Shown here: piece by piece, positions 8,211 to 33,067 of the stretch
How the letters are laid out: every line of letters starts with the position of its first letter
Position numbering within the stretch: position 1 is the stretch's first letter
Assembly (NCBI RefSeq): GCF_937891065.1
Contig: NZ_CALAEQ010000195.1
Span: forward strand, 1-39,568
Length of the DNA: 39,568 bases
Origin: an uncultured Lutibacter sp.
GTDB lineage: Bacteria; Bacteroidota; Bacteroidia; Flavobacteriales; Flavobacteriaceae
Direction: 5' to 3'
The notes under the pieces: model-generated
What the model saw: the letters and a program-made list of their open reading frames with translations, nothing else
Databases searched by the model: none
What the model was told of the DNA's origin: nothing
Position numbers and translations under genes: made by a program

Positions 8211-9116
8211 CTATCCTCCAATAGTTGCTATTATGCCATAATCTTTAAATATTGAGATTACTTTTTGAATCTCATCTTCAGAAGGTGTTTCAAATTCGAT
8301 AAAACTTGCTTCCCCTAACTTTTTATGTTTATTTTCAGCAATATTATGGTACGGCAATAAATTAATTAAATTTCTATTTCCTTCTAATGAATTAATAAAT
8401 TTTGCTGTTACTATTATATTCTTTTCTGAAGTATTTACATTTTTAATTAAAGGAATTCTAAAAATAATTTCACAATTTGTTTTAGCCAATTCAACAATAT
8501 TTGAAATAATTTTTTCATTTGTAACGCCTGTGAATTCATTATGTCTTTTAGAATCCATTACTTTTAAATCAATCAAAAAAAGCTCGGTGTGTTTAGCAAC
8601 TTCCAATAATATATCTTGTTTTGCAAATGCTGTAGTATCAACAACTCTATGATACATTCTTTTTCCACATTCTTTTAGGGCTTCTAATAAATATGCTGAA
8701 TGCATTAAAGGTTCTCCCCCAGAAAATGTAACACCTCCACCCGACTGATCGAAAAAAATAGCTTCATTATCTAGCTGTTTCATTAATTCTGAAATTGAAA
8801 TTGTTGAACCTAACATTTCAAAGGCTTTAGTTGGACAAACCTCAGCACATTTTCCGCACAAATTGCATAAATCATAATTTGTTTTAATTCCTTCTGCAGT
8901 TAACTCTAATGCATTATTAGGACAGTTATCAATACATTTTACAGCTCCAATGCACTTTTTAACATTGTACATTTTCTGCACTTTTGGCGACATACTTTCG
9001 GGATTATGACACCATTTACAAGATAAATTACAACCTTTTAAAAAAACGGTCATCCGTATTCCGGGGCCATCATTTATGGCATATTTTTTTATGTCAAAAA
9101 TTAAACCTGTGCTCAT
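8211..9116 (-). CDS. Glycyl-radical enzyme activase (radical SAM), HypD-activating type
   Basis: 301 residues. The radical-SAM motif C-x3-C-x2-C is at C29, C33 and C36 (GCNLSCKWCHNPE). An inserted ferredoxin-like region follows at about 50-98, with C84, C87, C90 and C94 as a normal CxxCxxCxxxCP motif. The first half of the insert has only C55, C61 and C65, one fewer Cys than a full eight-Cys dicluster ferredoxin. GGGVTFSGGEPLM (GGE motif) binds S-adenosylmethionine. The enzyme makes the 5'-deoxyadenosyl radical that abstracts hydrogen from the glycyl residue of its partner. Its ATG follows the stop codon of the glycyl-radical enzyme gene directly (TAA-ATG), so they form one translation-coupled unit. 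Oxygen-sensitive chemistry is expected. Confidence 0.92.
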   Translation of the reverse strand: MSTGLIFDIKKYAINDGPGIRMTVFLKGCNLSCKWCHNPESMSPKVQKMYNVKKCIGAVKCIDNCPNNALELTAEGIKTNYDLCNLCGKCAEVCPTKAFEMLGSTISISELMKQLDNEAIFFDQSGGGVTFSGGEPLMHSAYLLEALKECGKRMYHRVVDTTAFAKQDILLEVAKHTELFLIDLKVMDSKRHNEFTGVTNEKIISNIVELAKTNCEIIFRIPLIKNVNTSEKNIIVTAKFINSLEGNRNLINLLPYHNIAENKHKKLGEASFIEFETPSEDEIQKVISIFKDYGIIATIGG

Positions 9117-11570
9117 TTAAAACGACTCGTTTTCAGTTCTATCAATAACTTCCTGTTGTAAATCGGCATTCATATCATTAAAATAATCACTATAACCTGC
9201 CATTCTTACCAACAAATCTTTATAATCTTCAGGGTTTTCTTGTGCTGCGTACAATGTGGCTGTATCCACAATATTAAACTGAATATGATGTCCTCCCAAA
9301 GAAAAATAGGATCTAATTAAATTAGTCAACTTTATAAGGTCTTCATCTCGTTTTAATAAACTTGGTAAAAAACGTTGATTCAACAAAGTACCACCAGATT
9401 TTACATGATCAATTTTAGTTAATGATTTTATAACTGCTGAAGGGCCATTTGTATCTGCTCCATGTGAAGGTGATGTTCCATCTGAAATTGATTTTTGAGC
9501 AAATCTCCCGTTAGGTGTTGCTCCCATAATTTTTCCGAAGTACACATGGCAAGTAGTGGACAACATATTTAAATGAAATGTTTCACCTTTTGTATTTGGT
9601 TTTCCATCTATTGCTTCAAACAAATCATTGTAAACTTGCAATGCAATATCATCCGCAAAATTATCGTCATTTCCATAAAAAGGAGTTTTGTTAAGTATTG
9701 TTTGACGTAAAATTTCTTCACCTTCAAAATTCTTTGAAACTGCATTTAAAACTGTATCCATTGAATAGGTTTTATCCTCAAAAACGTGTTTCTTTAGGGC
9801 TGACAAACTATCTGTAACTGTTCCTAAACCTGTGCATTGAATATAATTGGTATTATATCTTGGGCCGCCATTATAATAATCTTTTCCTTTCGTTATGCAA
9901 TCTTCTATAACTACCGATAAAAAGGTTGCAGGACTATATTTTGCAAACATTCTATCTATATAATTACTCACTAAAATTTTCTGATTTACAATGTAATTCA
10001 ACTGTTTTAAAAAGGCATTGTACAGTTCATCATAACTTTTAAAATCTCTTGGATTTCCAGTTTCAATACTTACTTGTTTTCCCGTAACTGGATTAATTCC
10101 ATTATTTAACGTGATTTCAATAATTTTTGGAACATTTAAATAACCTGTTAAAATATAAGCTTCTTTTCCAAAAGCACCAACTTCAATACAACCACTACAA
10201 CCACCTTCACGTGCATCTTCTAAGGTTTTTCCTTGGCGTAACATTTCAGGAATGTAAATATCTGGATTGAAAATAGAAGGATATCCATGACCTTGACGAA
10301 TCACTTTACAAGCCTCTTTTAAAAATCTGTCAGGTGTTTTTGAACTTACATGAACAGAATTTCCTGGTTGAAGAACATGTAATTCTTCAACAATTTCTAA
10401 CATAATATAAGAGACTTCACTTGCACCATCTGCTCCATTTTTTTTAACTCCTCCAATATTAATATTTGTAAAATCGTTATAAGTTCCGCTTTCTTTAGCT
10501 GTAATCCCAACTTTTGGTGGCGCTGGATGATTATTTACTTTAATCCAAAAACAGCTTAACAACTCTTTTGCTCCATTACGAGTTAACGTTCCTGCTGCTA
10601 TTTCCTTTTCATAAAAAGGAGTTAAATGCTGATCAAAATGACCTGGATTCATTGCATCCCAGCCATTTAATTCTGTAATAGTTCCTAAATGTACAAACCA
10701 ATACATTTGTATGGCTTCGTAAAATGTTCTTGGTGCATTTGCAGGAACCCATTTACAAACTTCAGCTATTTTTTGAAGTTCTTTTTTTCGTTGTACATTA
10801 GTTTCAGTTTTAGCTTGTTCTTCAGCCAATTTTGCATGGCGTTCAGCAAAAACAATTGCAGCATCACAAGAAATGGCCATTCCTTCTAATTGCTCTTTTC
10901 GATCAGTAGCTTCTGGGTCGTTTAAAAAATCTAGTTTAGCTATTTCGCCTTGAATTTGCTTTTTAAAATCAAGCATTCCTTTTTCATAAATCTGCCCATC
11001 CAATGCTGTATGTCCTGGTGCCCGCTGCTCCATAAACTCTGTAAACAAACCTGCTTCATAAAGATTACTCCATTCTTTTGGAACATGACTAAAAATACGT
11101 TCTCGCATAGTTTTACCACTCCAATAAGGGATAATTTCACGTTCATACGTGTCAATATCCTCTTGTGAAATGGTATAACGCTGCATTTCACGTGTATTTA
11201 ACACCTTAAAATCTTCTACGCTATGACAGGTTAATTCAGGAAATGTTGGAACAGCCTTTGGTTTTGGTCCACGCTCACCAACAATTAATTCTCCTTCACC
11301 AAGATAAATTGTTTTTTGCTTACATATTTCCAAAAAATTAATTGCTCTTAAAACAGGCATCGCATATTTCCCGTAATTCTGTTTGTAAAACGTTGTTTGA
11401 ATTAGGGCTCTTTCAATAGACAATGAAGGTTCTGATTCAAAACTCAATTTTCTAAGTTTTTGAATTCTTTCATTCATTCCTGGACCTATCTTATTTTTTA
11501 AAGATGAATAGAAATTACCTTCTGATAATGCTGATCTTTCTGGCTGGATGTTTTTATGCACTGTTTTCAT
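9117..11570 (-). CDS. hypD: Glycyl-radical enzyme, trans-4-hydroxy-L-proline dehydratase (HypD)
   Basis: 817 residues with PFL-like and glycine-radical domains. The Cys loop EGGCSGCIEVGAFGKEAY gives thiyl C461 and base E463. The C-terminal RMAGYSDYF gives radical G792. Residues I recall from the Clostridioides difficile HypD structure (F152, H160, D278, S334, F340, C434, E436, T645, G765) all have identical counterparts here at a constant +27 shift: F179, H187, D305, S361, F367, C461, E463, T672, G792. This separates it from choline lyase, diol dehydratase and isethionate lyase. HypD removes water from trans-4-hydroxy-L-proline to give 1-pyrroline-5-carboxylate, which is then reduced to proline. 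The activase gene follows directly. No pyrroline-5-carboxylate reductase gene is in the window. Such enzymes need anoxic conditions. Confidence 0.9.
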   Translation of the reverse strand: MKTVHKNIQPERSALSEGNFYSSLKNKIGPGMNERIQKLRKLSFESEPSLSIERALIQTTFYKQNYGKYAMPVLRAINFLEICKQKTIYLGEGELIVGERGPKPKAVPTFPELTCHSVEDFKVLNTREMQRYTISQEDIDTYEREIIPYWSGKTMRERIFSHVPKEWSNLYEAGLFTEFMEQRAPGHTALDGQIYEKGMLDFKKQIQGEIAKLDFLNDPEATDRKEQLEGMAISCDAAIVFAERHAKLAEEQAKTETNVQRKKELQKIAEVCKWVPANAPRTFYEAIQMYWFVHLGTITELNGWDAMNPGHFDQHLTPFYEKEIAAGTLTRNGAKELLSCFWIKVNNHPAPPKVGITAKESGTYNDFTNINIGGVKKNGADGASEVSYIMLEIVEELHVLQPGNSVHVSSKTPDRFLKEACKVIRQGHGYPSIFNPDIYIPEMLRQGKTLEDAREGGCSGCIEVGAFGKEAYILTGYLNVPKIIEITLNNGINPVTGKQVSIETGNPRDFKSYDELYNAFLKQLNYIVNQKILVSNYIDRMFAKYSPATFLSVVIEDCITKGKDYYNGGPRYNTNYIQCTGLGTVTDSLSALKKHVFEDKTYSMDTVLNAVSKNFEGEEILRQTILNKTPFYGNDDNFADDIALQVYNDLFEAIDGKPNTKGETFHLNMLSTTCHVYFGKIMGATPNGRFAQKSISDGTSPSHGADTNGPSAVIKSLTKIDHVKSGGTLLNQRFLPSLLKRDEDLIKLTNLIRSYFSLGGHHIQFNIVDTATLYAAQENPEDYKDLLVRMAGYSDYFNDMNADLQQEVIDRTENESF

Positions 11571-22998: not shown

Positions 22999-24291
22999 TT
23001 AAGCATTCATTATTGCTTCAATTTCATCTATTTCAATCGGCATTGCTGCTGTTAAATTCCGAGTACCATTTTCTGTGATTAAATAATCATTCTCTAAACG
23101 ACATCCTATTCCTTCTTCAGCAATATAAATTCCTGGTTCACAAGTCACTACCATTCCAGCAGTAAATGGCCTTGTATATAAACCAACATCGTGTACATCT
23201 AAACCTATATGATGTGCTGTTCCGTGCATGAAATACTTTTTATACAATGGATTTAAAGGATCTTGCTTTTTAATTTCTTCAGCCTTCAACAAACCTAATT
23301 TTATCAATTGTTCTTCTACTAAGCCAGCCATTTGTTTTTCATAATCAGCTGATAATACACCTGGTTTTATCAGTTTTGAGCCTTCCTTTAAACAATGTAA
23401 AACTGAAATATATACTTCTTTTTGACGTTTACTAAACTTCCCGTTTACAGGGAAACAACGTGTAGTATCAGAATTATAATTCGCATAACAAACACCAAAA
23501 TCCATAAGTATCATATCTCCATCATTACAAATATGATCATTTGTATTGTAATGCAATGCACAAGCATTAGCACCTGAAGCAACTATTGGCATAAATGCAT
23601 GACGCTTTCCTCCTTTTCTAATAAGTTCGTATGCTAATTCAGCCTCTAATTCAAACTCATTCATTCCTGGTTTTACAGCTTTTAAAACACGCATAAAACT
23701 ACCAACACTAATATCTGCAGCTTGTTGCATTAAAGCAACCTCTTCTTCTGATTTTATCTGACGTAATTCACGTGCAATTTTTGCAGCGCGCTTATAATTA
23801 TGAAGTGGGTATTTTTCTTTACAGAAACTTATCATTCTGTCTTGCTGCGTATTTACTTCTGCTGTTAATGTTTTTTTATGCTCATTATGTCCAAGATAAA
23901 AAGTATCAGCATCAAATGCCATATATTGTAATGCAAGTTCAAAATCTTGAACCCATTTTACATTTTTAATCCCTGAAACTTCAAAAGCTTGCTCTTTTGT
24001 CAACTTATCACCTTCCCAAATTTTAATAAGATCACTCGTTTCTTTTACAAATAAAATTTCTCTGTTTTCAGGTGAAGCAGCATCTGGATACAAAACCAAT
24101 ATTGATTCTTCCTGATCAACACCACTTAAATAAAACAATTCATTGTTTTGAGCAAATCCCATAACATCATCTGCATTATTAGGCATTATATCATTTGATG
24201 TTAAAATAGCTATGGAATTAGGTTCCATTTTAGCTGCAAAATTTTGTCGGTTTTTTATAAATAAAGATGAAGGTATTTTAGTGTAACGCAT
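22999..24291 (-). CDS. pepP: Xaa-Pro aminopeptidase (M24B)
   Basis: 430 residues, the length of aminopeptidase P with its N-terminal creatinase-type domain (about 1-170) and a pita-bread catalytic domain. The metal ligands are visible: two Asp in LMDFGVCYANYNSDTTR, His in the HGTAHHIGLDVHD segment, Glu in CEPGIYI and Glu in GCRLENDYLIT. The His that contacts substrate is in the same HGTAHH segment. It removes an N-terminal residue before proline in the cytoplasm and helps finish digestion of proline-rich peptides. It has the same strand as the racemase operon upstream, with a 136-bp gap and no clear terminator between. Confidence 0.92.
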   Translation of the reverse strand: MRYTKIPSSLFIKNRQNFAAKMEPNSIAILTSNDIMPNNADDVMGFAQNNELFYLSGVDQEESILVLYPDAASPENREILFVKETSDLIKIWEGDKLTKEQAFEVSGIKNVKWVQDFELALQYMAFDADTFYLGHNEHKKTLTAEVNTQQDRMISFCKEKYPLHNYKRAAKIARELRQIKSEEEVALMQQAADISVGSFMRVLKAVKPGMNEFELEAELAYELIRKGGKRHAFMPIVASGANACALHYNTNDHICNDGDMILMDFGVCYANYNSDTTRCFPVNGKFSKRQKEVYISVLHCLKEGSKLIKPGVLSADYEKQMAGLVEEQLIKLGLLKAEEIKKQDPLNPLYKKYFMHGTAHHIGLDVHDVGLYTRPFTAGMVVTCEPGIYIAEEGIGCRLENDYLITENGTRNLTAAMPIEIDEIEAIMNA

Positions 24292-24427: not shown

Positions 24428-25501
24428 TTAAATCAATTTCTTTTCAATATACTCAGAATTCATAATACGCAAAGCGCCCATGTATTTCATTTTAAAGCTT
24501 ACCAAGTCTCCAACTTTATATTTTTTATTCGTTCTGCTTAAATCTACAATCAGCATATCAGAACTTGCTCCAATAAATGAAATCTCTTTATCTACCGGAA
24601 TCAAAAAATCAGTTTTAGAAATATCCAAAAGCCCTATATCTAAAATTCCTCTACTATGATTTCTCCCGTAATCTTCAGGGTCAATATCAAGTGTTTCTCC
24701 CGATGGATTTTCTTCCATATCTCCATAAGGGACAATAGATTTTTCTGTTATTTCAATGATTTCAGCATACAACAAGAAAACATCATTCTTCATTTTAGGA
24801 ATTGTTTTATTTGTAAATAAATCAACACCAAAAAATAATGATTCTCCAATTCTGAAATGATTAACCCCCTTTGGAATTTGTCTTTTTAATAAAAGTGGAA
24901 TCATCACGGATGATCCGCCGGAAACGTAATCAATTTTCTTTCCGAATTTTGCTTCAATCAATTGCTCATATAAACTCAGTTGAATTAGTTTATCTTTACT
25001 AGGCATTATACCACTCAAACAATTTAGATTTGCTCCAATACCTGATACTAAAATATTAGGCAGTTCAAATATTTTTTTATAAAATGCCATTAAATGCTCT
25101 CCCAAAATTCCTTCACGTAAATCACCCAATTCTATCATAATTATAATTCGGTGGATTTTATCTTGTTTTATAGCTTCTTCAGACAGCCATTTAATGGTCG
25201 TAAATTCTGTATTAAAACTAACATCCGCATATTTAACTACATTTTTTATACTTCTTTTTGCTGGTGGTTTTATATAGATGGTTTCTTTAGTAGGATTTAT
25301 AGATTTTATTTTTTTTAAATTTGTTAGCCTGGCATCACAAACTTGTTCGTTTCCTAAGGATAAAACAAATTCAAGATACATCTTATTTCCACAAAGCATC
25401 TTCAAAACAGGTGCCCATTCAATACCGTTTTTTTGAAACAATTGTTGAAGATAACTATAATTAATTGCTAATGATTTTCTGTTTAAAGTTATATATGCCA
25501 T
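24428..25501 (-). CDS. Ornithine/alanine racemase-family PLP enzyme
   Basis: 357 residues. This is an alanine-racemase-type TIM barrel of the Orr/YhfX branch rather than Alr. The PLP lysine is K34 in PVLKMLCGNK. The phrases VKYADVSFNTEF, IIMIELGDLREGI and VSGGSSVMIPLL are characteristic of ornithine-racemase relatives. The C-terminal beta domain is present (about 230-357). The family interconverts L- and D-forms of amino acids such as ornithine, but its specificity cannot be predicted well. The start is 2 bp after the stop of a true alanine racemase gene. Two racemases in tandem suggests different substrates or a heteromeric enzyme. It is the last gene of the six-gene minus-strand run. Confidence 0.82.
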   Translation of the reverse strand: MAYITLNRKSLAINYSYLQQLFQKNGIEWAPVLKMLCGNKMYLEFVLSLGNEQVCDARLTNLKKIKSINPTKETIYIKPPAKRSIKNVVKYADVSFNTEFTTIKWLSEEAIKQDKIHRIIIMIELGDLREGILGEHLMAFYKKIFELPNILVSGIGANLNCLSGIMPSKDKLIQLSLYEQLIEAKFGKKIDYVSGGSSVMIPLLLKRQIPKGVNHFRIGESLFFGVDLFTNKTIPKMKNDVFLLYAEIIEITEKSIVPYGDMEENPSGETLDIDPEDYGRNHSRGILDIGLLDISKTDFLIPVDKEISFIGASSDMLIVDLSRTNKKYKVGDLVSFKMKYMGALRIMNSEYIEKKLI

Positions 25502-25503
25502 AA

Positions 25504-26652
25504 TTATTTAATTATAATTCGAGGGATGTCTTTATCAATTCTTGATAAAACTTCGTAGTTAAGCTGATCTGTATTATTACAAAATGAAGATAAAGGGATG
25601 TCTAAATCAGTACTCGACCCAATTAAAATTACTTCATCATTTATATCAATTGAATTACTTGACGTTATATCTACCAGAAACATATTCATATTGATTGTAC
25701 CTATTACGCTATATCTATTATTATTAATAATAACCCTTCCTAAATTACTTAAGCTTCTGCTATATCCATAACCATAGCCAATTGGGACAGAAGCTACTAT
25801 AGTTTCATTTTCTGCTAAAAAAGAACTACCATATCCAATAAATTCACCTTTAGACACATGTTTAATATCCATAATATACGATTTCCAACTTAATACTGGT
25901 TTTAAAGGATTTGTATTAATATTAAGTTTAGATATATATGCAATAAAAGCTTCTCTACTTGGCCACAAACCATATTGTAAAATTCCTACTCTAACCATGT
26001 CATAATTTTTGTTAGAAAATGCTAAAACAGCAGCGCTGCATGAGCAGTGAATTTGTTGTGGAATAATTTCTTGAGATTTAAAAAAAATAATTGCCTTATT
26101 AAATACTAATTGTTGCTTTTTTACCCTAACATAATTATTTAAACTCTCTGCACCTGCAAAATGAGTACATAAACCTTTTACTTTTATAAAATCTTTATTT
26201 GCATTCACTAACTGAATAATCTGAAGCCAATCCTTTTGATTAAATCCTGTTCGGTTCATTCCAGTTTCTATCTCAATATGAATAGTTAAAACCTTCTTTA
26301 TTTTCTTAGCTTTTGAAAGCATTCGTTCCAATCTCCCTATGTTAAAAACATAAAATTCTATAGAGTTATCAATAATCCAATCCTCATCACTACCGCTAAT
26401 ATCTCCCATAATCATTATTGTAAAGTCATTTTTTACAACTTTAAATACTTCTTTTGCTTCAAAAGAACTATATACTGAAAAATGATTAACGTTAAGCTCC
26501 TGCAATATAGGTACCATTCCAATAATGCTATGTCCATAAGCATTACCTTTTACAACAGATGATACGATTACAGATTCATTAATTAATGATTTTATAAAAT
26601 CTATATTATTTTTTAATGCTGATTTGCTTATTTGAATAATTGAATTATGCAT
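25504..26652 (-). CDS. Alanine racemase-like PLP enzyme
   Basis: 382 residues, the normal Alr length, with barrel and C-terminal beta domain. The PLP lysine is K35 in VVKGNAYGHS. MNRTG and RVGILQYG carry the conserved Arg residues. The opposing catalytic Tyr is kept in PIGYGYGYSRS, but the usual GYxDG is changed to GYGYG. The usual CMDQ loop reads NMNMF, so Asp is replaced by Asn near the substrate entry. Alr normally makes D-Ala for peptidoglycan. These changes and the catabolic-looking neighbours suggest a specialised or broad-range racemase rather than the housekeeping copy. The ATG overlaps the end of the M20D gene by 8 bp. Confidence 0.85.
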   Translation of the reverse strand: MHNSIIQISKSALKNNIDFIKSLINESVIVSSVVKGNAYGHSIIGMVPILQELNVNHFSVYSSFEAKEVFKVVKNDFTIMIMGDISGSDEDWIIDNSIEFYVFNIGRLERMLSKAKKIKKVLTIHIEIETGMNRTGFNQKDWLQIIQLVNANKDFIKVKGLCTHFAGAESLNNYVRVKKQQLVFNKAIIFFKSQEIIPQQIHCSCSAAVLAFSNKNYDMVRVGILQYGLWPSREAFIAYISKLNINTNPLKPVLSWKSYIMDIKHVSKGEFIGYGSSFLAENETIVASVPIGYGYGYSRSLSNLGRVIINNNRYSVIGTINMNMFLVDITSSNSIDINDEVILIGSSTDLDIPLSSFCNNTDQLNYEVLSRIDKDIPRIIIK

Positions 26653-27799
26653 GAATTAATTTGATTATTGAATGAAACATTTTTACTCCATAAGGTGTTA
26701 TTTCATCAGGAAAATCGTAATCTGGGTTATGTAAAGCTGGTGTTTCTTTTCCTGAACCCACAGCAAACATTGCGCCTTTATATTGTTGGGTAAATGCTCC
26801 AAAATCCTCACCCCATTTAAATGGGGTTTGCTTTTCTAAAACTTTAAAAGAATTGGAATTTGCTGCTTTTACTATATAATCAACTGCTTTGTCATCATTA
26901 TTATTTGAATCAAATTCAAAAATCCAATTCAACGTGTGCTTCAGCTGATGTTTTTTACTAATATTTTGTACTGTAGTTGAACTAATTTCTTTTATTTTTT
27001 TCAATTGCTTAGCTGTCCAACATCGTATTGTAAAATGCAATTCGGCATAATCTGCTGAAATACCATAATCTTCAGATCCTAAGTTAGCATAAACCGTTGT
27101 TACTACAGTAAATGTTTCACTATCAACATTATTATCAGCCAACCCTTTAATTGCAACTATTATTTCTTGTAAAGCTAAATCTGGATTTATACCATTTTCT
27201 GGTTCTGCAGCATGAGAAGTTTTTCCTTTCAACGTAATTTTTAAACTTGAAACTGAAGTAGTAAATGAATTATTTTTTACTATAATAGTACCTTTATCAT
27301 AGTCTGGTACATTATGCAAAGCAAAAACAAAATCGGGTTTAATTGATTTAAATTTTTCATCGGCTAAAACTGCTTTTGCACCATTTCCATTTTCTTCTGC
27401 TGGTTGAAATAATAAAATAACTTCTCCTTTTAAAAGAGGATTTAATTTTAACATTCTTGCCAAACCAATTAACATAGTGGCGTGTCCATCGTGACCACAT
27501 TTATGAGAAATTCCTGAATATTTAGATGTATGTTCAAATGTATTTTCTTCTTGAATAGGTAAAGCATCTAATTCTGCCCTAAAAAGTATAGTCTTACCTT
27601 TTAAAGGGCTCTTAAAAATAGCAGCAACACCGTGTCCTCCAAGTTCAGTAATAATAGTTGTTGGATTGCATAATTTTAACTCATCAACAAGGGCTTCAGC
27701 TGTTTGCTTCTCTTCACCCGATAATTCAGGGAATTGATGCAATTTTTTTCTAAAGTTTGTTAAATAATTTATTTCTTCAACATTTGATATACTTATCAT
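26645..27799 (-). CDS. M20D amidohydrolase (N-acyl-amino-acid deacylase type)
   Basis: 384 residues, typical of the AmhX/HipO/YkuR group. Motifs: RAELDALPIQE, KCGHDGHATM (C101, H103), QPAEENGNGA (E135, E136), LHNVPD (H162), SHAAEPENGINP in the lid and ALHNPDYDFPDE at the C terminus, a complete dinuclear metal site. Enzymes of this type remove acyl groups from N-acyl amino acids in the cytoplasm (acetyl-diaminopimelate, hippurate and similar). The substrate is not readable here. It lies 17 bp after the symporter gene and overlaps the racemase start, which places deacylation between uptake and racemisation. There is no signal peptide. Confidence 0.88.
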   Translation of the reverse strand: MISISNVEEINYLTNFRKKLHQFPELSGEEKQTAEALVDELKLCNPTTIITELGGHGVAAIFKSPLKGKTILFRAELDALPIQEENTFEHTSKYSGISHKCGHDGHATMLIGLARMLKLNPLLKGEVILLFQPAEENGNGAKAVLADEKFKSIKPDFVFALHNVPDYDKGTIIVKNNSFTTSVSSLKITLKGKTSHAAEPENGINPDLALQEIIVAIKGLADNNVDSETFTVVTTVYANLGSEDYGISADYAELHFTIRCWTAKQLKKIKEISSTTVQNISKKHQLKHTLNWIFEFDSNNNDDKAVDYIVKAANSNSFKVLEKQTPFKWGEDFGAFTQQYKGAMFAVGSGKETPALHNPDYDFPDEITPYGVKMFHSIIKLIHA

Positions 27800-27816
27800 G
27801 ATAATTTTGTTCTCGT

Positions 27817-29220
27817 TTATTTTTTAACAAATAAATACGTTACTAAAGATAGTGAAATCCCAACTAATATCGGGTCGAAACCATATGGGATTTCTACGCC
27901 CATAAATGTCAAAATTAAAGTAGAAGATCCGCCAATTATCATTGAGGATAAAGCGGCTATAGGTTTTCTTTTTTTTGATAATAATATCCCTAAAACAGGT
28001 ATTAAAAGTCCAGAAACCATGAAAGAGTATGATAATAACATCAATTCTAATACACTTTGCATTGTAGTGGCAATAATAATTGCAACTCCTCCAACCAAAA
28101 AAGTAACAATTTGAGAAATTCTTATGGTTTTTTTATTAAGTTCTTTTAAACCTAAAATATCTGTTACAAAATTACCTGATGATGCCAGTAAACAACTATC
28201 TGCTGTAGACATTATTGCTGAAAAATAAGCTGATAACATCAAGCCCATTAAACCTACTGGTAATACATGTTTTAAAAGCAAAGGCATTCCCATTTCAGGA
28301 TCCATTCCAATTTCGCTTTCAAATCCATCAGAAATAAAAACTCCTTTTGCTGCAGCTACACGTGCAAATAAGCCAAGAATTACACCCATAAATGCCATTA
28401 TTGGGTATTCAAAAAGTCCAGCTATAAACCAAGCTTTTTTTGCGGTTTTTTCATCTTTACAAGCATATATTCTTTGATAAAGTGTCATTCCAACAAACCA
28501 AATAGGAACTATAATTACAAACCAATTTACGATTTGAACAAATGAAACATTTTGTAATGAAAAATATTTTTGAGGAAGTATTTTAACTATCTCTTCATAA
28601 CCTCCTAAATAGTTATAAGCAAAAGGAATCCCTATAAAAATTAAGCCAACCATTAAAATTATCCATTGAAAAGTGTCTGTGTAAATTACAGCTTTCATAC
28701 CTCCAAAAACAGTATAAATAAGGGCAATACCTCCCATTATCAATAAAGCTGAATTCAAATCAAGTGAAGGAAATGTACCAACTGCTAATTTTGCACCTGC
28801 CAGAAATTGGGATGAAGTAAAGCCTAAATATCCAATAAAGGAAATAATACCAGCAACCATAGCTACAGTAGTACCGTAACTGTGTTTTAAAAACTCTGGA
28901 AATGTTAAAAAGCCGTGTAAATTACCTAATTTCACAACCTTTGGAATCAAAAAAACAGCGCTTAACCAAGCGCCTATAAGGCCTGTAAATAACATCCAAG
29001 AACCTGAAATTCCCATAACAAAACCAAGTCCACCTAATCCAATTGAAAATCCGCCTCCAACATCTGTTGCAACAACGGATAATCCAACATGTAAACTGCT
29101 CATTTCACCACCACCAATGAAATAGTCTTTAACAGTTTCATTTTTTTTAAAAAAATAAAACCCTATCCCTAAAACAGTGATCATGTAAACCACAAAAACA
29201 ACAATATCTAAAAAAGCCAT
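27817..29220 (-). CDS. Sodium:solute symporter (SSS family)
   Basis: 467 residues with about 13 hydrophobic segments. The N-terminal VKDYFIGGGEMSS and the Gly/Ser-rich stretch after it (DVGGGFSIGLGG) are typical of the sodium and substrate site of SSS proteins. The mid-protein GGMKAVIYTDTFQWIIL is the family signature, and YFSAIMSTADSCLLASSG is the second conserved segment, with Ser/Thr of the Na2 site. The family takes up proline, pantothenate, sugars or other small solutes with sodium. The operon suggests an amino acid or N-acyl amino acid. It sits 5 bp after the GNAT gene and 17 bp before the amidohydrolase gene. Confidence 0.9.
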   Translation of the reverse strand: MAFLDIVVFVVYMITVLGIGFYFFKKNETVKDYFIGGGEMSSLHVGLSVVATDVGGGFSIGLGGLGFVMGISGSWMLFTGLIGAWLSAVFLIPKVVKLGNLHGFLTFPEFLKHSYGTTVAMVAGIISFIGYLGFTSSQFLAGAKLAVGTFPSLDLNSALLIMGGIALIYTVFGGMKAVIYTDTFQWIILMVGLIFIGIPFAYNYLGGYEEIVKILPQKYFSLQNVSFVQIVNWFVIIVPIWFVGMTLYQRIYACKDEKTAKKAWFIAGLFEYPIMAFMGVILGLFARVAAAKGVFISDGFESEIGMDPEMGMPLLLKHVLPVGLMGLMLSAYFSAIMSTADSCLLASSGNFVTDILGLKELNKKTIRISQIVTFLVGGVAIIIATTMQSVLELMLLSYSFMVSGLLIPVLGILLSKKRKPIAALSSMIIGGSSTLILTFMGVEIPYGFDPILVGISLSLVTYLFVKK

Positions 29221-29225
29221 GGCGT

Positions 29226-29675
29226 TTAGTGTTGTTTTTTAAGGCGCATTTCTAAGTATTTGTTTTCAAAGCCTAATTTTTCATATAAAAATTTTGCAGG
29301 ATTGTTTGGTTCTACATGCAATGCAATATCTCCATCAGCCAACTCAATGGCTTTATTCATTATTTTTTTACCAATACCTTTACCTCTAGCATTTTCATGA
29401 ACAGCAATATAAACAAGTATATTTTCAGGAATAAAACCTCCCATACCTGTTTTATTAACTATTGTGATTCCATTAATTTCTCCATTTTCATGAAGAATCA
29501 ATACAAATCCACCAAGCCCTTCCTTAGAATCCTTTACTGCAAAATCAAAACATTTGCTAATATCTTCTGTTTTATCACCATATTCTTGTAGATGCTGAAA
29601 CAAAAACGCAACAACTTCTTCCTTTTCTTGTTCAGTTGGTTTAAATGCTTTGTTGTAAATTTTAAAATTGTCCAT
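29226..29675 (-). CDS. GNAT family N-acetyltransferase
   Basis: 149 residues. The acetyl-CoA-binding motif A is ENARGKGIGKKIMNKAIEL, with the R-x-x-G-x-G pyrophosphate loop, preceded by the NILVYIAVHE beta-strand. The C-terminal VEPNNPAKFLYEKLGFE is the usual GNAT ending. The family transfers acetyl groups to amines. The acceptor is unknown, but an amino acid or D-amino acid would fit the racemase/deacylase operon, and a ribosomal protein is also possible given the next gene. Only 1 bp separates it from the bS21-like gene upstream, so the two are tightly coupled. Confidence 0.85.
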   Translation of the reverse strand: MDNFKIYNKAFKPTEQEKEEVVAFLFQHLQEYGDKTEDISKCFDFAVKDSKEGLGGFVLILHENGEINGITIVNKTGMGGFIPENILVYIAVHENARGKGIGKKIMNKAIELADGDIALHVEPNNPAKFLYEKLGFENKYLEMRLKKQH

Positions 29676-29676
29676 C

Positions 29677-29871
29677 TTATTGATTTTCTTGTTCTTGCAA
29701 ATGTTGTTTATAGCAAGCTTTTCCTATTTGTTTTCTTCTTTTTACAGATTTTTTTGTGTAATGTTTATTCTCTCTTAAATTATTTAGAAGCTTCGTATTT
29801 CTTACTTTTCTCTTATAACGTTTTAAAGCTCTATCAATATTTTCACCTTCTTTTACTGGTATTATTAACAT
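29677..29871 (-). CDS. Divergent bS21 ribosomal protein (rpsU-like), first gene of the operon
   Basis: 64 residues. The N terminus MLIIPVKEGENIDRALKRYK is a clear bS21 start. The second half departs from what I recall as the usual flavobacterial bS21: the KTG turn is RNTKLL and the KPS motif is KKS (HYTKKSVKRRKQIGKACYKQ). bS21 binds the 30S platform near the 3' end of 16S rRNA and in Bacteroidota helps mask the anti-Shine-Dalgarno. Housekeeping rpsU usually sits elsewhere, near hpf/xerC/tuf in flavobacteria. This copy leads an amino-acid-related operon, so it may be a paralog. No Shine-Dalgarno is seen; a perfect inverted repeat lies directly before the start. Confidence 0.82.
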   Translation of the reverse strand: MLIIPVKEGENIDRALKRYKRKVRNTKLLNNLRENKHYTKKSVKRRKQIGKACYKQHLQEQENQ

Positions 29872-30078: not shown

Positions 30079-30555
30079 TTAATTGGAAAGATATTCTTCA
30101 GAAGTTATTATTGGCGACGCATCAACTTCATCAACTTCCATTATACTCGTTAGAATATCAATTCCATCAATAATTGTTTGTAATTTTTCTGGAGGAAGTG
30201 CTTGTAGTTTTTCACTTAATTTTTGTTGAAAAGTTATTGGTGCAGATTGAAGCAATTCCATTCCATTAGCGGTTAATGAAATTAGTGTCACCCTTTTATC
30301 TGAGGCTTTTGGAAGTTTAGCGACCAACCCTTTCTTTTCTAATCTTCTTAAAATACCAGAAATAGTACTCGCATTTAAATTTAAAAACGCTTTAAGTTTA
30401 ACTGCATTTGTTCTAAAATCTTCTTGCTCAGCTAAAAACTGTAAACATAGTAATTGAGGAATACTTACACCTTGCTCTTTTTCAACTCGTTTACTTTCTA
30501 AGTTAACGGATCGTACAATTTTTCGCAATTTTATTAAAATATCAATAAAAGTCAT
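30079..30555 (-). CDS. MarR family transcriptional regulator
   Basis: 158 residues from the ATG at 30555. An in-frame TTG 6 bp upstream is less likely. The winged-helix pattern is VSIPQLLCLQFL, then LKAFLNLNASTISGILRRLEKKGLVAKLPKASDKR (recognition helix and wing, about 60-95), then VTLISLTANG, with helices for dimerisation at both ends. MarR proteins usually repress nearby genes by binding a palindrome and release it on binding a small ligand. It is on the same strand as the bS21-like operon, 207 bp upstream, with palindromes between. It could also control the VOC/dehydrogenase pair 107 bp upstream of it. The target is not proven. Confidence 0.88.
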   Translation of the reverse strand: MTFIDILIKLRKIVRSVNLESKRVEKEQGVSIPQLLCLQFLAEQEDFRTNAVKLKAFLNLNASTISGILRRLEKKGLVAKLPKASDKRVTLISLTANGMELLQSAPITFQQKLSEKLQALPPEKLQTIIDGIDILTSIMEVDEVDASPIITSEEYLSN

Positions 30556-30668
30556 TTTCAAAAGTAACCAAAAAAACTTAACAACTCTTAAATTCGTTAA
30601 TGTTAATCAATGTTTTATTTCCCTTAATCAACTCAATTACTACTTTTTTACTCAACTTTACTTAGTAC

Positions 30669-31069: not shown

Positions 31070-32644
31070 TTAAAATGTTTGTACTCCATCAACTAAACGC
31101 GAAATTTTTAATGGATTTTCATTTTTTAATTCATCTGGTAATAACTCATTTGGCCAATTTTGGAAACTAAATGGGCGAACCCATCGTTTAATTGAATTAA
31201 TACCAACTGCTGTAAATCGACTATCAGTTGATGCTGGATATGGGCCACCATGAACCATCGCCGGGCAAACTTCAACTCCGGTAGGTACACCATTAAAAAT
31301 TATACGCCCTACTCTATTTTGAAGTGCACTTACTATATTCTGATAATTTCTAATTTCATTATCTTCAGCTAAAATTGTACCTGTTAATTGTCCTTCTAAT
31401 TTTGAAATTATTAGTTCTAACTGTTCAATACTTTCACATTGTACTATCATTGAAAACGGCCCAAAAACTTCTTGATGCAATACTGTATTTTCTAAAAAAG
31501 TAGCTCCTTCAACAGTTGTTATCATTTGACGACCGTAATTAGCTGATACATCTTTACTAACATTTGCAGTTGTCTCCAATCCTTTTTGGTTTTGCATATT
31601 GGCCTTATTACTTTCGTATGCTCCAATAATATTTGGGTGCAACATGCAACTTGGTTCTATTTTTACAATTTCTTCCGATAAAATATAAATGAAATTAGCT
31701 AATTCATCACTTTTAATTCCTAATATTAAACCTGGGTTTGTACAAAATTGTCCCGAACCCAGTGTAATAGAATCCGCATACGTTTTTGCCCATTCATTTC
31801 TTTTATTTTTTGTTGCTTTTGGCAATAAAACTACAGGATTTACACTTCCCATTTCAGCAAATACTGGAATTGGTTCATCTCTTTGAGCAGCTATATCATA
31901 CAAAGCTCTTCCTCCACGAATACTTCCAGTAAAACCAACTGCTTTTACTTCTGGGTGTTTAACCAGTATTTGTCCAACTTCAATTCCGCTGCTGTTTAAA
32001 TTTGAGAAAACTCCATTTGGCATTCCTGTTTTTAAAGCTGCATTTATAATTGCTGAAGCAACTAACTCACCAGTACCTGCGTGCATTGGATGTGATTTTA
32101 CAATTACAGGGCAACCAGCAGCAAAAGCTGCAGCCGTATCACCACCAGCAGTTGAATATGCTAACGGAAAATTACTTGCCCCGAACACTACAACAGGTCC
32201 TAAGGGTATCAGCATTTTACGAATATCTACTTTCGGAATTGGTTCTCTATTTGGTTGTGCAGTATCAATAGTTGCTTCAACCCAAGAACCTTCTTTTACC
32301 AAATTAGCAAATGAGCGAAGTTGGAAAATTGTTCTACTTCTTTCTCCTATTGCTCTACCTTCTGGCAATCCCGATTCTGAACAATACATTTTGATGAGTT
32401 CATCTCCTAATGCTTCAATTTCATTTGCAATTTCATTCAAGAAATTATTTTTTTTATCACCTGAAACTATTTTAAAAGTTTTAAATGCTTCTGTTGCTAA
32501 TTCTACTGCTGCTTGAATTTCAATAGTGGAAGCTTCAGTATAAATAATCTCATTTTCTAGGTTGGTTTGTGGATTGAATGTTTTGTAGGTTATATTTCCT
32601 AGTGATGACAATACATTACCGATATAATTTTTTCCTGTAATCAT
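31070..32644 (-). CDS. 2,5-dioxovalerate (alpha-ketoglutarate semialdehyde) dehydrogenase
   Basis: 524 residues, the longer length typical of the NADP-dependent 2,5-dioxovalerate dehydrogenase branch of the aldehyde dehydrogenases. The catalytic Cys is C301 in GSGQFCTNPG, the general base is E264 in FAEMGSVNPVVLLP, and the oxyanion Asn is N158 in FGASNFP. The MGSVNP and SGQFCTNPG phrases are diagnostic of this branch. It oxidises alpha-ketoglutarate semialdehyde to alpha-ketoglutarate, the last step of oxidative 4-hydroxyproline, L-arabinose, D-xylose and glucarate routes. None of the earlier genes is in the window. An AraC regulator is divergent. Confidence 0.88.
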   Translation of the reverse strand: MITGKNYIGNVLSSLGNITYKTFNPQTNLENEIIYTEASTIEIQAAVELATEAFKTFKIVSGDKKNNFLNEIANEIEALGDELIKMYCSESGLPEGRAIGERSRTIFQLRSFANLVKEGSWVEATIDTAQPNREPIPKVDIRKMLIPLGPVVVFGASNFPLAYSTAGGDTAAAFAAGCPVIVKSHPMHAGTGELVASAIINAALKTGMPNGVFSNLNSSGIEVGQILVKHPEVKAVGFTGSIRGGRALYDIAAQRDEPIPVFAEMGSVNPVVLLPKATKNKRNEWAKTYADSITLGSGQFCTNPGLILGIKSDELANFIYILSEEIVKIEPSCMLHPNIIGAYESNKANMQNQKGLETTANVSKDVSANYGRQMITTVEGATFLENTVLHQEVFGPFSMIVQCESIEQLELIISKLEGQLTGTILAEDNEIRNYQNIVSALQNRVGRIIFNGVPTGVEVCPAMVHGGPYPASTDSRFTAVGINSIKRWVRPFSFQNWPNELLPDELKNENPLKISRLVDGVQTF

Positions 32645-33067
32645 TTATTTTTTTCAGTTGTTCTTTTATTTTGTGTTAGCGATTGAAGTGATATCCTTTT
32701 TATATGGTAAAAAGATTTAACGAAAAGCGCGACCGCTTGCGGTAACACCCAAATTTACAAACTTCAAACTATTATAGTCTGATAATTTTGGTCTTTTTTT
32801 AAACCCAATTCAATAATTGCCAACTTAATATATTGTACTAATTTAGTGTTTATATCTAACTCTAACAACCGCAAAAACATCAATAAGTTCTTCGACATAT
32901 CTTACATTAATTCTATGGCATAACACCTGCAGGATTATTTTAAATCATGATTGATAACTTTATACTTTCAGTTGTTATTTTTATATTTTCCAATAATTAA
33001 TAGTATTATTTTACCTTATTATATGTACTTTAGCGGCGTATTAGAATAATATTTACAATTTGTTTGA
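32645..33067. other. 423-bp divergent intergenic region
   Basis: It lies between the dehydrogenase and AraC-regulator starts. I see no coding frame. It holds a partial repeat at 32718-32750 and a CAAATTTA (32750-32757), which is a minus-strand TAAATTTG -7-like element for the dehydrogenase without a -33 TTG at standard spacing. No clear AraC operator repeat was found by eye. Confidence 0.5.
32718..32750 (-). repeat. Partial degenerate copy of the 18691 repeat
   Basis: Read on the minus strand, this segment starts GGGTGTTACCGCAAGCGGTC and runs through a GCTTT to end in GTTA. It aligns with the first 30 or so bases of the element at 18691 with a few changes. It is GC-richer than its surroundings. 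Confidence 0.35.

What the first reader, a model, noticed from the sequence alone, without database searches (positions are those of the whole stretch)
24428..29871. Six-gene operon joining a bS21 ribosomal protein to a transporter, deacylase and two racemases
Six minus-strand genes are packed with gaps or overlaps of -8 to 17 bp: bS21-like, GNAT, SSS symporter, M20D amidohydrolase, Alr-like racemase, Orr-like racemase. Family knowledge suggests import of an amino acid or N-acyl amino acid, removal of an acyl group, and L/D conversion, with the GNAT able to run the reverse acylation. I know of no described system with this combination or with a ribosomal protein at its head. It may be a D-amino-acid salvage or signalling unit coupled to translation state.
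Basis: partly seen in the sequence, partly recalled or inferred. Interest (0 to 1): 0.72.

Follow-up and report, generated by a model that had tools for sequence, protein, structure and literature searches.

The report
Second bS21 heads ornithine-racemase-type operon
In marine Lutibacter bacteria, a spare copy of a ribosomal protein is the first gene of a small, probably switchable operon whose other genes look like a transporter and enzymes that flip and trim an ornithine-like amino acid, so a nutrient signal may also change what the cell's ribosomes are made of.

Summary
The six ORFs are real, at the stated coordinates (gaps 1, 5, 17, -8, 2 bp). The window is a Lutibacter-type flavobacterial contig.

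The bS21 gene is not the canonical rpsU, which lies elsewhere (acaD-rpsU-xerD-tuf) with the extended Shine-Dalgarno (SD) that drives bS21 autoregulation. It is a second, SD-less paralogue ("rpsU2"); 137 of 397 sampled Flavobacteriaceae genomes carry two or more bS21 genes. The widespread core of the rest is a GNAT-Orr pair (58 of 62 loci), often with SSS, less often with M20-Alr.

bS21 joined this core about three times on an Orr tree. In three genera the cassette lies at the ancestral rpsU2 site; in Lutibacter rpsU2 and cassette sit beside a MarR gene. A 14-bp palindrome, found once in the draft genome, begins 49-60 bp before bS21 in 25 of 25 Lutibacter-type loci. Of 38 Lutibacter genomes, 24 have Orr, the bS21 paralogue and MarR; 14 have none.

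Ornithine is the likeliest substrate: argBDCJ lies inside the operon in two species, and ornithine aminotransferase lies near 12 loci of one other family. Substrate, ribosomal incorporation and regulator identity are inferred. Whether bS21 is functionally coupled or a carried-along promoter gene is open.

The parts
29677..29871 (-). rpsU2: second, SD-less bS21 paralogue, first gene of the operon
   Evidence: PF01165 62.7 bits; duplex with 16S tail -2.3 kcal/mol against -21.0 for the canonical copy of the same genome (rows L001 and L002); Y54 kept; canonical copy on G000:C183
29907..29920 (.). Palindromic operator GTTTCTATAGAAAC beginning 49 bp before the bS21 start; followed by TATTTTAG, a Bacteroidota-type -7-like element (consensus recalled)
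   Evidence: 0-1 mismatch in 25 of 25 Lutibacter-type clusters; at best 4 mismatches within 200 bp upstream of 7 other cluster, 18 stand-alone, 21 canonical and 5 unclassed bS21 genes; one site in the 95%-complete draft genome with up to 1 mismatch
30079..30561 (-). MarR-family regulator, likely controller of the operon (inferred)
   Evidence: PF01047 48.0 bits; found at E <= 1e-20 in 24 of 24 Orr-positive and 0 of 14 Orr-negative Lutibacter genomes
29226..29675 (-). GNAT N-acetyltransferase, partner of Orr
   Evidence: PF13508 50.8 bits; GNAT in 58 of 62 Orr loci; model mean pLDDT 87.4, GNAT-fold matches
27817..29220 (-). Sodium:solute symporter (PutP/PanF-like), optional
   Evidence: PF00474 157.6 bits; in 45 of 62 loci
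26645..27799 (-). M20D amidohydrolase (N-acyl amino acid deacylase-like), optional
   Evidence: TIGR01891 231.6 bits over 153.75; 31 of 62 loci
25504..26652 (-). Alr-type fold-III racemase, optional; conserved MD motif of alanine racemase changed to MN
   Evidence: TIGR00492 279.5 over 168; MN in 36 of 36 cluster Alr proteins aligned; another alanine racemase C-domain at G000:C99
24428..25501 (-). Orr-like fold-III PLP racemase
   Evidence: NF040742 310.8 bits, below cut-off 480; K34 invariant in 12 of 12 aligned; model pLDDT 85.3; fold matches alanine racemases and D-threonine aldolase

Best explanation
A MarR-switched operon that joins a second, feedback-free bS21 to an ornithine-type racemase/acetyltransferase module. 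SHOWN by sequence: gene order conserved; one palindromic operator at a promoter-like site before bS21 and no room for a promoter between bS21 and GNAT; bS21 is a distinct SD-less paralogue that keeps Y54; bS21 joined to GNAT-Orr in three separate branches of the Orr tree. INFERRED: the SSS symporter imports an ornithine-like (possibly N-acylated or D-) amino acid, M20D removes the acyl group, Orr and Alr interconvert D and L forms, and GNAT N-acetylates one of them. The adjacent MarR senses the substrate and releases the promoter. Induction also makes rpsU2 protein, which enters 30S subunits in place of, or in addition to, canonical bS21, keeps the anti-SD tail sequestered, and thereby lowers SD-driven translation of canonical rpsU.
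For: Lutibacter co-occurrence: Orr, bS21 paralogue and MarR in 24 genomes, none of them in 14. Operator in 25 of 25 Lutibacter-type clusters and at one place in the genome. Canonical rpsU SD duplex median -20.5 kcal/mol (21 genes) against -2.0 for cluster (32) and -1.95 for stand-alone (18) paralogues; residue 54 is Y in 21/21, 31/32, 18/18. Position 24 is D in 21/21 canonical but R in 28/30 cluster and 18/18 stand-alone proteins. At least three changes of the bS21 label on the Orr tree. Purifying selection on rpsU2, median dN/dS 0.16. Ornithine: argB-argD-argC-argJ inside the operon of L. flavus and L. maritimus, the L. flavus genes all over their cut-offs; argJ in 12 of 24 Orr-positive and 0 of 14 Orr-negative genomes; ornithine aminotransferase 2.1-5.4 kb from Orr in 12 of 62 loci, all of family f24. 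Autoregulation of canonical rpsU by bS21-lacking ribosomes: PMC9976891 (passages and Discussion read).
Against: No expression or biochemical data. Orr fails its curated cut-off. GNAT-Orr occurs without bS21 in most lineages, and rpsU2 occurs without the cassette in most genomes that have it. In three genera the cassette simply lies downstream of rpsU2 at its ancestral site, so adjacency could have begun as promoter capture. Co-occurrence in Lutibacter is of linked genes, and relatedness was not corrected. SD strengths overlap at the edge: one stand-alone paralogue (L133) has -9.8 and the weakest canonical gene (L131) -9.7. OAT lies on the other strand or apart, in one family only. Hydroxyproline genes beside the locus in 10 of 22 Lutibacter-type stretches point to proline-family substrates as an alternative.
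Confidence: 0.45

Rival explanations
1. bS21 is a passenger. A horizontally spreading GNAT-(SSS)-(M20-Alr)-Orr cassette landed downstream of the stand-alone rpsU2 gene, used its promoter, and later moved together with it. There is no functional link to translation.
For: rpsU2 stands alone before DUF2797 in 14 of the 19 paralogue stretches looked at; in L035, L166, L167, L186, L187 the cassette lies between rpsU2 and DUF2797 (one small ORF extra in L167); bS21 is absent from 71 of 99 Orr rows.
Against: In L190 the cluster's bS21 is a different copy from that genome's DUF2797-linked one in L197; in L194 the bS21 lies inside the unit after GNAT, where promoter capture would not put it (GNAT there reads in two frames). 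In Lutibacter the upstream region is different and carries the operator, yet bS21 stayed first in 25 of 25.
Confidence: 0.35
2. The module makes and recycles an ornithine-derived compatible solute (such as an N-acetylated D- or L-ornithine): argBDCJ supplies ornithine, Orr and GNAT modify it, SSS takes it back up, M20 breaks it down, MscS releases it.
For: argBDCJ inside the operon in two species; elsewhere in the genome in others, followed by an MscS channel in 4 of 7 stretches examined, including argJ-MscS in the window's own genome.
Against: No osmotic regulation seen; MscS absent from the other 3 of 7 stretches; nothing here ties the many clusters of other taxa to salt; OAT neighbours fit a catabolic reading as well.
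Confidence: 0.12
3. The unit belongs to proline/hydroxyproline-peptide catabolism: it helps use Pro/Hyp-rich peptides, with ornithine-like chemistry incidental.
For: In 10 of 22 Lutibacter-type stretches a 4-hydroxyproline epimerase (example 589.5 bits over 376) lies upstream, typically as DapA-like, KGSADH, epimerase, D-amino acid dehydrogenase-like, MarR, bS21...Orr, PepP; SSS is nearest PutP among named equivalogs.
Against: The window, L097, L111, L112, L114 and L168 keep MarR-bS21-Orr where no epimerase was found; none of the four hydroxyproline genes was found at E <= 1e-20 in the 61 other loci of the phylum-wide set.
Confidence: 0.1
4. The GNAT acetylates bS21 (RimI-like), so the head of the operon is a ribosome-modifying pair.
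For: Weak RimI profile hit, 31.7 bits under an 86.4 cut-off; RimI 5isv among Foldseek hits; bS21-GNAT adjacency.
Against: GNAT is paired with Orr in dozens of loci without bS21; polyamine acetyltransferases score similarly.
Confidence: 0.05

Closest known systems
Canonical rpsU/bS21 of Flavobacterium johnsoniae (autoregulated by an extended SD; PMC9976891)
   Same: Same protein family, similar length, Y54 kept; best PDB sequence hit is 7jil chain z, a ribosomal bS21 (that 7jil is F. johnsoniae is recalled)
   Different: No SD, different locus, D24 to R and other paralogue-specific residues, in an operon with metabolic genes
bS21 paralogues in other phyla, which PMC9976891 (Discussion read) lists and proposes as translation regulators
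   Same: Extra bS21 gene proposed to substitute in the ribosome
   Different: That list names no Bacteroidota; here the paralogue is tied to a probably MarR-regulated amino-acid operon
Ornithine racemase Orr of clostridial oxidative ornithine degradation (pathway recalled)
   Same: Nearest curated family of the last gene (NF040742, full length, 310.8 bits)
   Different: Below the family cut-off; genome context GNAT/SSS/M20/Alr; D-ornithine aminomutase was not searched for
rpsU-dnaG-rpoD macromolecular-synthesis operon of E. coli (recalled)
   Same: Stand-alone rpsU2 lies about 30 bp after an rpoD-like gene in several flavobacteria
   Different: Order reversed, no dnaG seen, second copy only

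Membership tests
bS21 ribosomal protein | Profile score over curated cut-off | tested here: met
   PF01165 62.7 over 27; TIGR00030 51.8 over 28.95
bS21 ribosomal protein | Residue Y54 that contributes to anti-SD sequestration in Bacteroidia | tested here: met
   Y54 in the window copy and 31 of 32 cluster copies
Canonical flavobacterial rpsU | Extended SD upstream and acaD-rpsU-xerD-tuf location | tested here: not met
   -2.3 against -21.0 kcal/mol for the genome's two copies; canonical copy on another contig
bS21 ribosomal protein | Incorporation into 30S subunits | not testable with these tools
   Needs ribosome proteomics
Ornithine racemase Orr (NF040742) | Score over curated cut-off 480 | tested here: not met
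   310.8 bits; hence 'Orr-like'
Ornithine racemase Orr (NF040742) | Fold-III PLP barrel with an invariant lysine near the end of the first barrel strand | tested here: met
   K34 invariant in 12 of 12; Foldseek to alanine racemases and D-threonine aldolase, prob 1.00
Ornithine racemase Orr (NF040742) | Racemises ornithine | not testable with these tools
   Gene context only
Alanine racemase (TIGR00492) | Score over cut-off 168 | tested here: met
   279.5 bits
Alanine racemase (TIGR00492) | GYADG and MDQ motifs (their roles recalled) | tested here: not met
   0 of 36 cluster Alr proteins has GYADG or MD at these places; the window has GYGYG and MN; specificity for alanine doubtful
M20D amidohydrolase (TIGR01891) | Score over cut-off 153.75 | tested here: met
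   231.6 bits
DoeB2 N-acetyldiaminobutanoate deacetylase | Score over cut-off 550 | tested here: not met
   199.1 bits
RimI bS18 acetyltransferase | Score over cut-off 86.4 | tested here: not met
   31.7 bits
PutP proline symporter (TIGR02121) | Score over cut-off 515.5 | tested here: not met
   140.5 bits; TIGR00813 157.1 under 184; SSF PF00474 is met
Oxidative ornithine degradation (Orr-OraSE) | D-ornithine aminomutase present | not tested
   Not searched

The most novel reading that the evidence does not exclude
Metabolite-controlled ribosome composition: an ornithine-family signal, read by MarR, induces an SD-less bS21 together with the genes that use the signal; the new bS21 replaces the canonical one, silences canonical rpsU through the anti-SD feedback, and gives ribosomes tuned for growth on that substrate. 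Independent recruitment of bS21 to GNAT-Orr clusters would reflect selection for this coupling.
Probability: 0.2. Interest if true: 0.87.

Novelty: new variant of a known kind. Interest (0 to 1): 0.62.

Why it matters
Whether bacteria use alternative ribosomal proteins to reprogramme translation is open. Flavobacteria offer a sharp test because bS21 controls access to the anti-SD and regulates its own synthesis (PMC9976891). A widespread second bS21 outside that feedback, placed in Lutibacter under a probably regulated promoter with amino-acid genes, makes the question directly testable. The GNAT-Orr module itself looks like a little-studied piece of amino-acid metabolism found in many Bacteroidota; my paper searches found no description of it.

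Tried and rejected
Considered and set aside. Canonical rpsU misread: the canonical gene is elsewhere. Phage origin of the bS21: the neighbours of L190 and L194 look chromosomal by eye, and three of the L190 neighbours have ordinary Pfam families. Ectoine use: DoeB2 and ectoine hydrolase profiles far under cut-off. Peptidoglycan salvage: an M23-type gene recurs in 25 of 62 loci, but the best NCBIfam hit of the one tested is a multidomain hypothetical (PRK06148) and I saw no obvious signal peptide by eye; left open.

Led nowhere: PDB sequence search with Orr gave no hit; GNAT structure hits mix protein and polyamine acetyltransferases; sigma-70 promoter scan at chance, 37 against 35.7 (this phylum uses another promoter type, recalled); terminator-like sites 5 against a mean of 2.0, all inside genes; the plasmid search found one record, a cluster without bS21. 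Paper searches listed no description of the GNAT-Orr cluster, and 29 and 89 none of flavobacterial bS21 paralogues in their titles or abstract starts; these were search listings. PMC9976891: passages and the Discussion read. PMC9600857: two passages read, where acetylornithine appears only through an aminotransferase.

The 395- and 397-genome samples are, in the tool's words, drawn evenly from a larger group. Of the 62 non-window genomes with Orr, 60 were fetched (G119 and G123, both at contig ends, were not); with the window and the Persicobacter plasmid this makes the 62 loci. The 28 bS21-bearing loci leave out L185 (the same contig as L112). L108 is scored 'no bS21' in the Orr tree because its contig ends first; the same genome has the paralogue on another contig (G791). 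Of the 14 Orr-negative Lutibacter genomes, the single bS21 was seen in canonical context in 6; the other 8 are judged by identity (58-61%) and copy number only, and four of the 14 are under 90% complete. The dN/dS comparison uses largely different species for the two paralogues. The chance calculation rests on assumed adjacency rates and a hand-counted 12 lineages.
Full report
OBSERVATION. The six ORFs are present exactly as described, with family assignments over curated cut-offs except the last gene, which is Orr-like but below the Orr cut-off. The window is contig G000:C195 of a 3.2-Mb, 276-contig genome; its nearest named relatives are Lutibacter.

TWO KINDS OF bS21. The genome has two bS21 genes. 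The other lies on C183 in acaD-rpsU-xerD-tuf with GAAAGGAGGTG before its start. Across 76 distinct bS21 genes fetched here, predicted pairing of the 25 upstream bases with the 16S tail has a median of -20.5 kcal/mol for 21 canonical genes, -2.0 for 32 cluster genes and -1.95 for 18 stand-alone paralogues. Five genes in no class are outside this comparison; one of them (L214) has a strong SD and is a near copy of a canonical gene, four have none. The ranges touch: the strongest stand-alone gene has -9.8 (L133), the weakest canonical one -9.7 (L131). Y54, the residue whose loss impairs anti-SD sequestration in PMC9976891, is kept in 21/21, 31/32 and 18/18. Position 24 is D in 21/21 canonical proteins (L214 counted in) but R in 28/30 cluster and 18/18 stand-alone ones. 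In the bS21 tree the 20 canonical rows plus L214 form one group (99/98), though with 64 columns many forks are unresolved. rpsU2 evolves faster than rpsU (mean pairwise identity 73.6% over 12 sequences against 88.4% over 9, median dN/dS 0.16 against 0.06; species sets differ) but under purifying selection. Of 397 Flavobacteriaceae genomes, 376 had a match and 137 had two or more. PMC9976891 (Discussion read) lists extra bS21 genes in six other groups and names no Bacteroidota.

WHERE rpsU2 CAME FROM. In 14 of 19 paralogue stretches rpsU2 is followed by DUF2797, usually then GH3, and several lie just after an rpoD-like gene (Pfam). In five genomes of three genera (L035, L166, L167, L186, L187) the GNAT-...-Orr cassette lies between rpsU2 and DUF2797, with one small extra ORF in L167. 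In the Lutibacter genomes and g361 searched, DUF2797 is not beside the cluster (in G649 it is about 20 kb away on the same contig): I infer that rpsU2 and cassette moved as a unit. Two more genomes join bS21 with a more distant Orr: L190 (bS21-GNAT-SSS-Orr, with a separate DUF2797-linked copy in L197) and L194 (GNAT-bS21-SSS-Orr, GNAT reading in two frames; bS21 with H54). On an Orr tree of 99 rows (short search, SH-aLRT support only) the bS21 label needs 4 changes, at least 3 by supported branches; the fourth is L108, whose contig ends before bS21. Of 17 Flavobacteriaceae genomes with Orr, 10 have bS21 in the cluster and 7 do not. If adjacency by chance were 0.2-1% per lineage, three of twelve lineages would have probability 2e-6 to 2e-4 (assumed rates, rough). 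In the phylum-wide set of 62 loci only the window and L035 have bS21.

REGULATION. Every distinct Lutibacter-type cluster bS21 gene fetched (25 of 25, g361 included) has GTTTCTATAGAAAC with at most one mismatch beginning 49-60 bp before the start; in the 200 bp upstream of 7 other cluster, 18 stand-alone, 21 canonical and 5 unclassed genes the best match has 4 or more mismatches. In 10 of 22 regions it is the perfect 20-bp palindrome ATAGTTTCTATAGAAACTAT. With up to one mismatch it occurs once in the draft genome. A TATTTTTG/TATTTTAG element follows it, matching the Bacteroidota -7 box as I recall it. The upstream MarR gene (E <= 1e-20) is in 24 of 24 Orr-positive and 0 of 14 Orr-negative Lutibacter genomes, and so is the bS21 paralogue; Fisher p for 24/0 against 0/14 is 1e-10, but the genes are linked and relatedness is not corrected. 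G799 (62% complete) shows only the paralogue, and G802's Orr is cut by a contig end. bS21-GNAT gaps are -20 to 26 bp. That MarR binds this site is inferred.

THE METABOLIC MODULE. In 62 loci (60 of 62 non-window genomes with a hit among 395 searched, plus window and Persicobacter plasmid) GNAT is present in 58, SSS in 45, M20 in 31, Alr in 26, an M23-type gene in 25, and an ornithine aminotransferase in 12. The 12 OAT genes are 66-100% identical to the one that scores 672.7 bits over the 378.4 cut-off, lie 2.1-5.4 kb from Orr, and all come from one family, f24. Some contigs end inside the stretch, so the counts are lower bounds. In L. flavus (L096) and L. maritimus (L110) argB-argD-argC-argJ lies between Alr and Orr in the same tight run (L096 genes over cut-off). 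argJ occurs at E <= 1e-30 in 12 of 38 Lutibacter genomes, all Orr-positive (p = 0.001, same caveat). In seven further stretches argJ lies elsewhere, with MscS after it in 4 (L279, L282, L284, L285) and not in 3; L282 is the window genome's own argJ-MscS, argJ cut by the contig end. This makes ornithine the best candidate substrate. Against it: Orr misses its cut-off, and in 10 of 22 Lutibacter-type stretches a 4-hydroxyproline epimerase lies upstream with its pathway genes, so a proline-family substrate is possible; none of these genes was found in the 61 other loci of the phylum-wide set. The cluster Alr proteins have MN where alanine racemases have MD, in 36 of 36, and lack GYADG, arguing against plain alanine racemisation; the genome has another alanine racemase C-domain at C99. 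Structures predicted for GNAT and Orr are fairly confident and of the expected folds but do not settle substrates.

VERDICT. A real, conserved, probably MarR-controlled operon with an unexpected leader: an SD-less bS21 paralogue. That rpsU2 is a distinct paralogue and that the unit is conserved are well supported. Functional coupling between bS21 and the metabolic genes is suggested by repeated joining and by its place at the head in Lutibacter, but promoter capture remains a serious rival. Ornithine as substrate is likely but unproven.

Noticed in passing
window 32664-32738 (+): Flavo-1 RNA (RF01705, 49.9 bits) just upstream of the aldehyde dehydrogenase gene.
   Followed up: no
window 8211-11570 (-): Pyruvate-formate-lyase-like glycyl radical enzyme with an adjacent radical-SAM activase-like gene.
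   Followed up: no
L096 4618-8963; L279, L282, L284, L285: argBDCJ ornithine-synthesis genes, in several Lutibacter followed by an MscS mechanosensitive channel; argJ found only in Orr-positive genomes of the 38 searched.
   Followed up: partly
L095, L098-L102, L104, L107, L109, L113 upstream of MarR; window 31070-32644: A 4-hydroxyproline catabolic operon beside the cluster in 10 of 22 Lutibacter-type stretches; in the window only the aldehyde dehydrogenase of it was recognised.
   Followed up: partly
L130, L133, L135, L140, L141, L149, L150, L182, L199: Stand-alone rpsU2 lies about 30 bp after an rpoD-like sigma factor gene in several flavobacteria.
   Followed up: partly
L047 7594-8244 (-) and the same family in 25 loci: M23-type gene, in L047 18 bp after Orr; nearest NCBIfam model is a large multidomain hypothetical, PRK06148.
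   Followed up: no
window 22999-24291 (-): Xaa-Pro aminopeptidase-like gene directly after the operon, also next in many other Lutibacter loci.
   Followed up: partly
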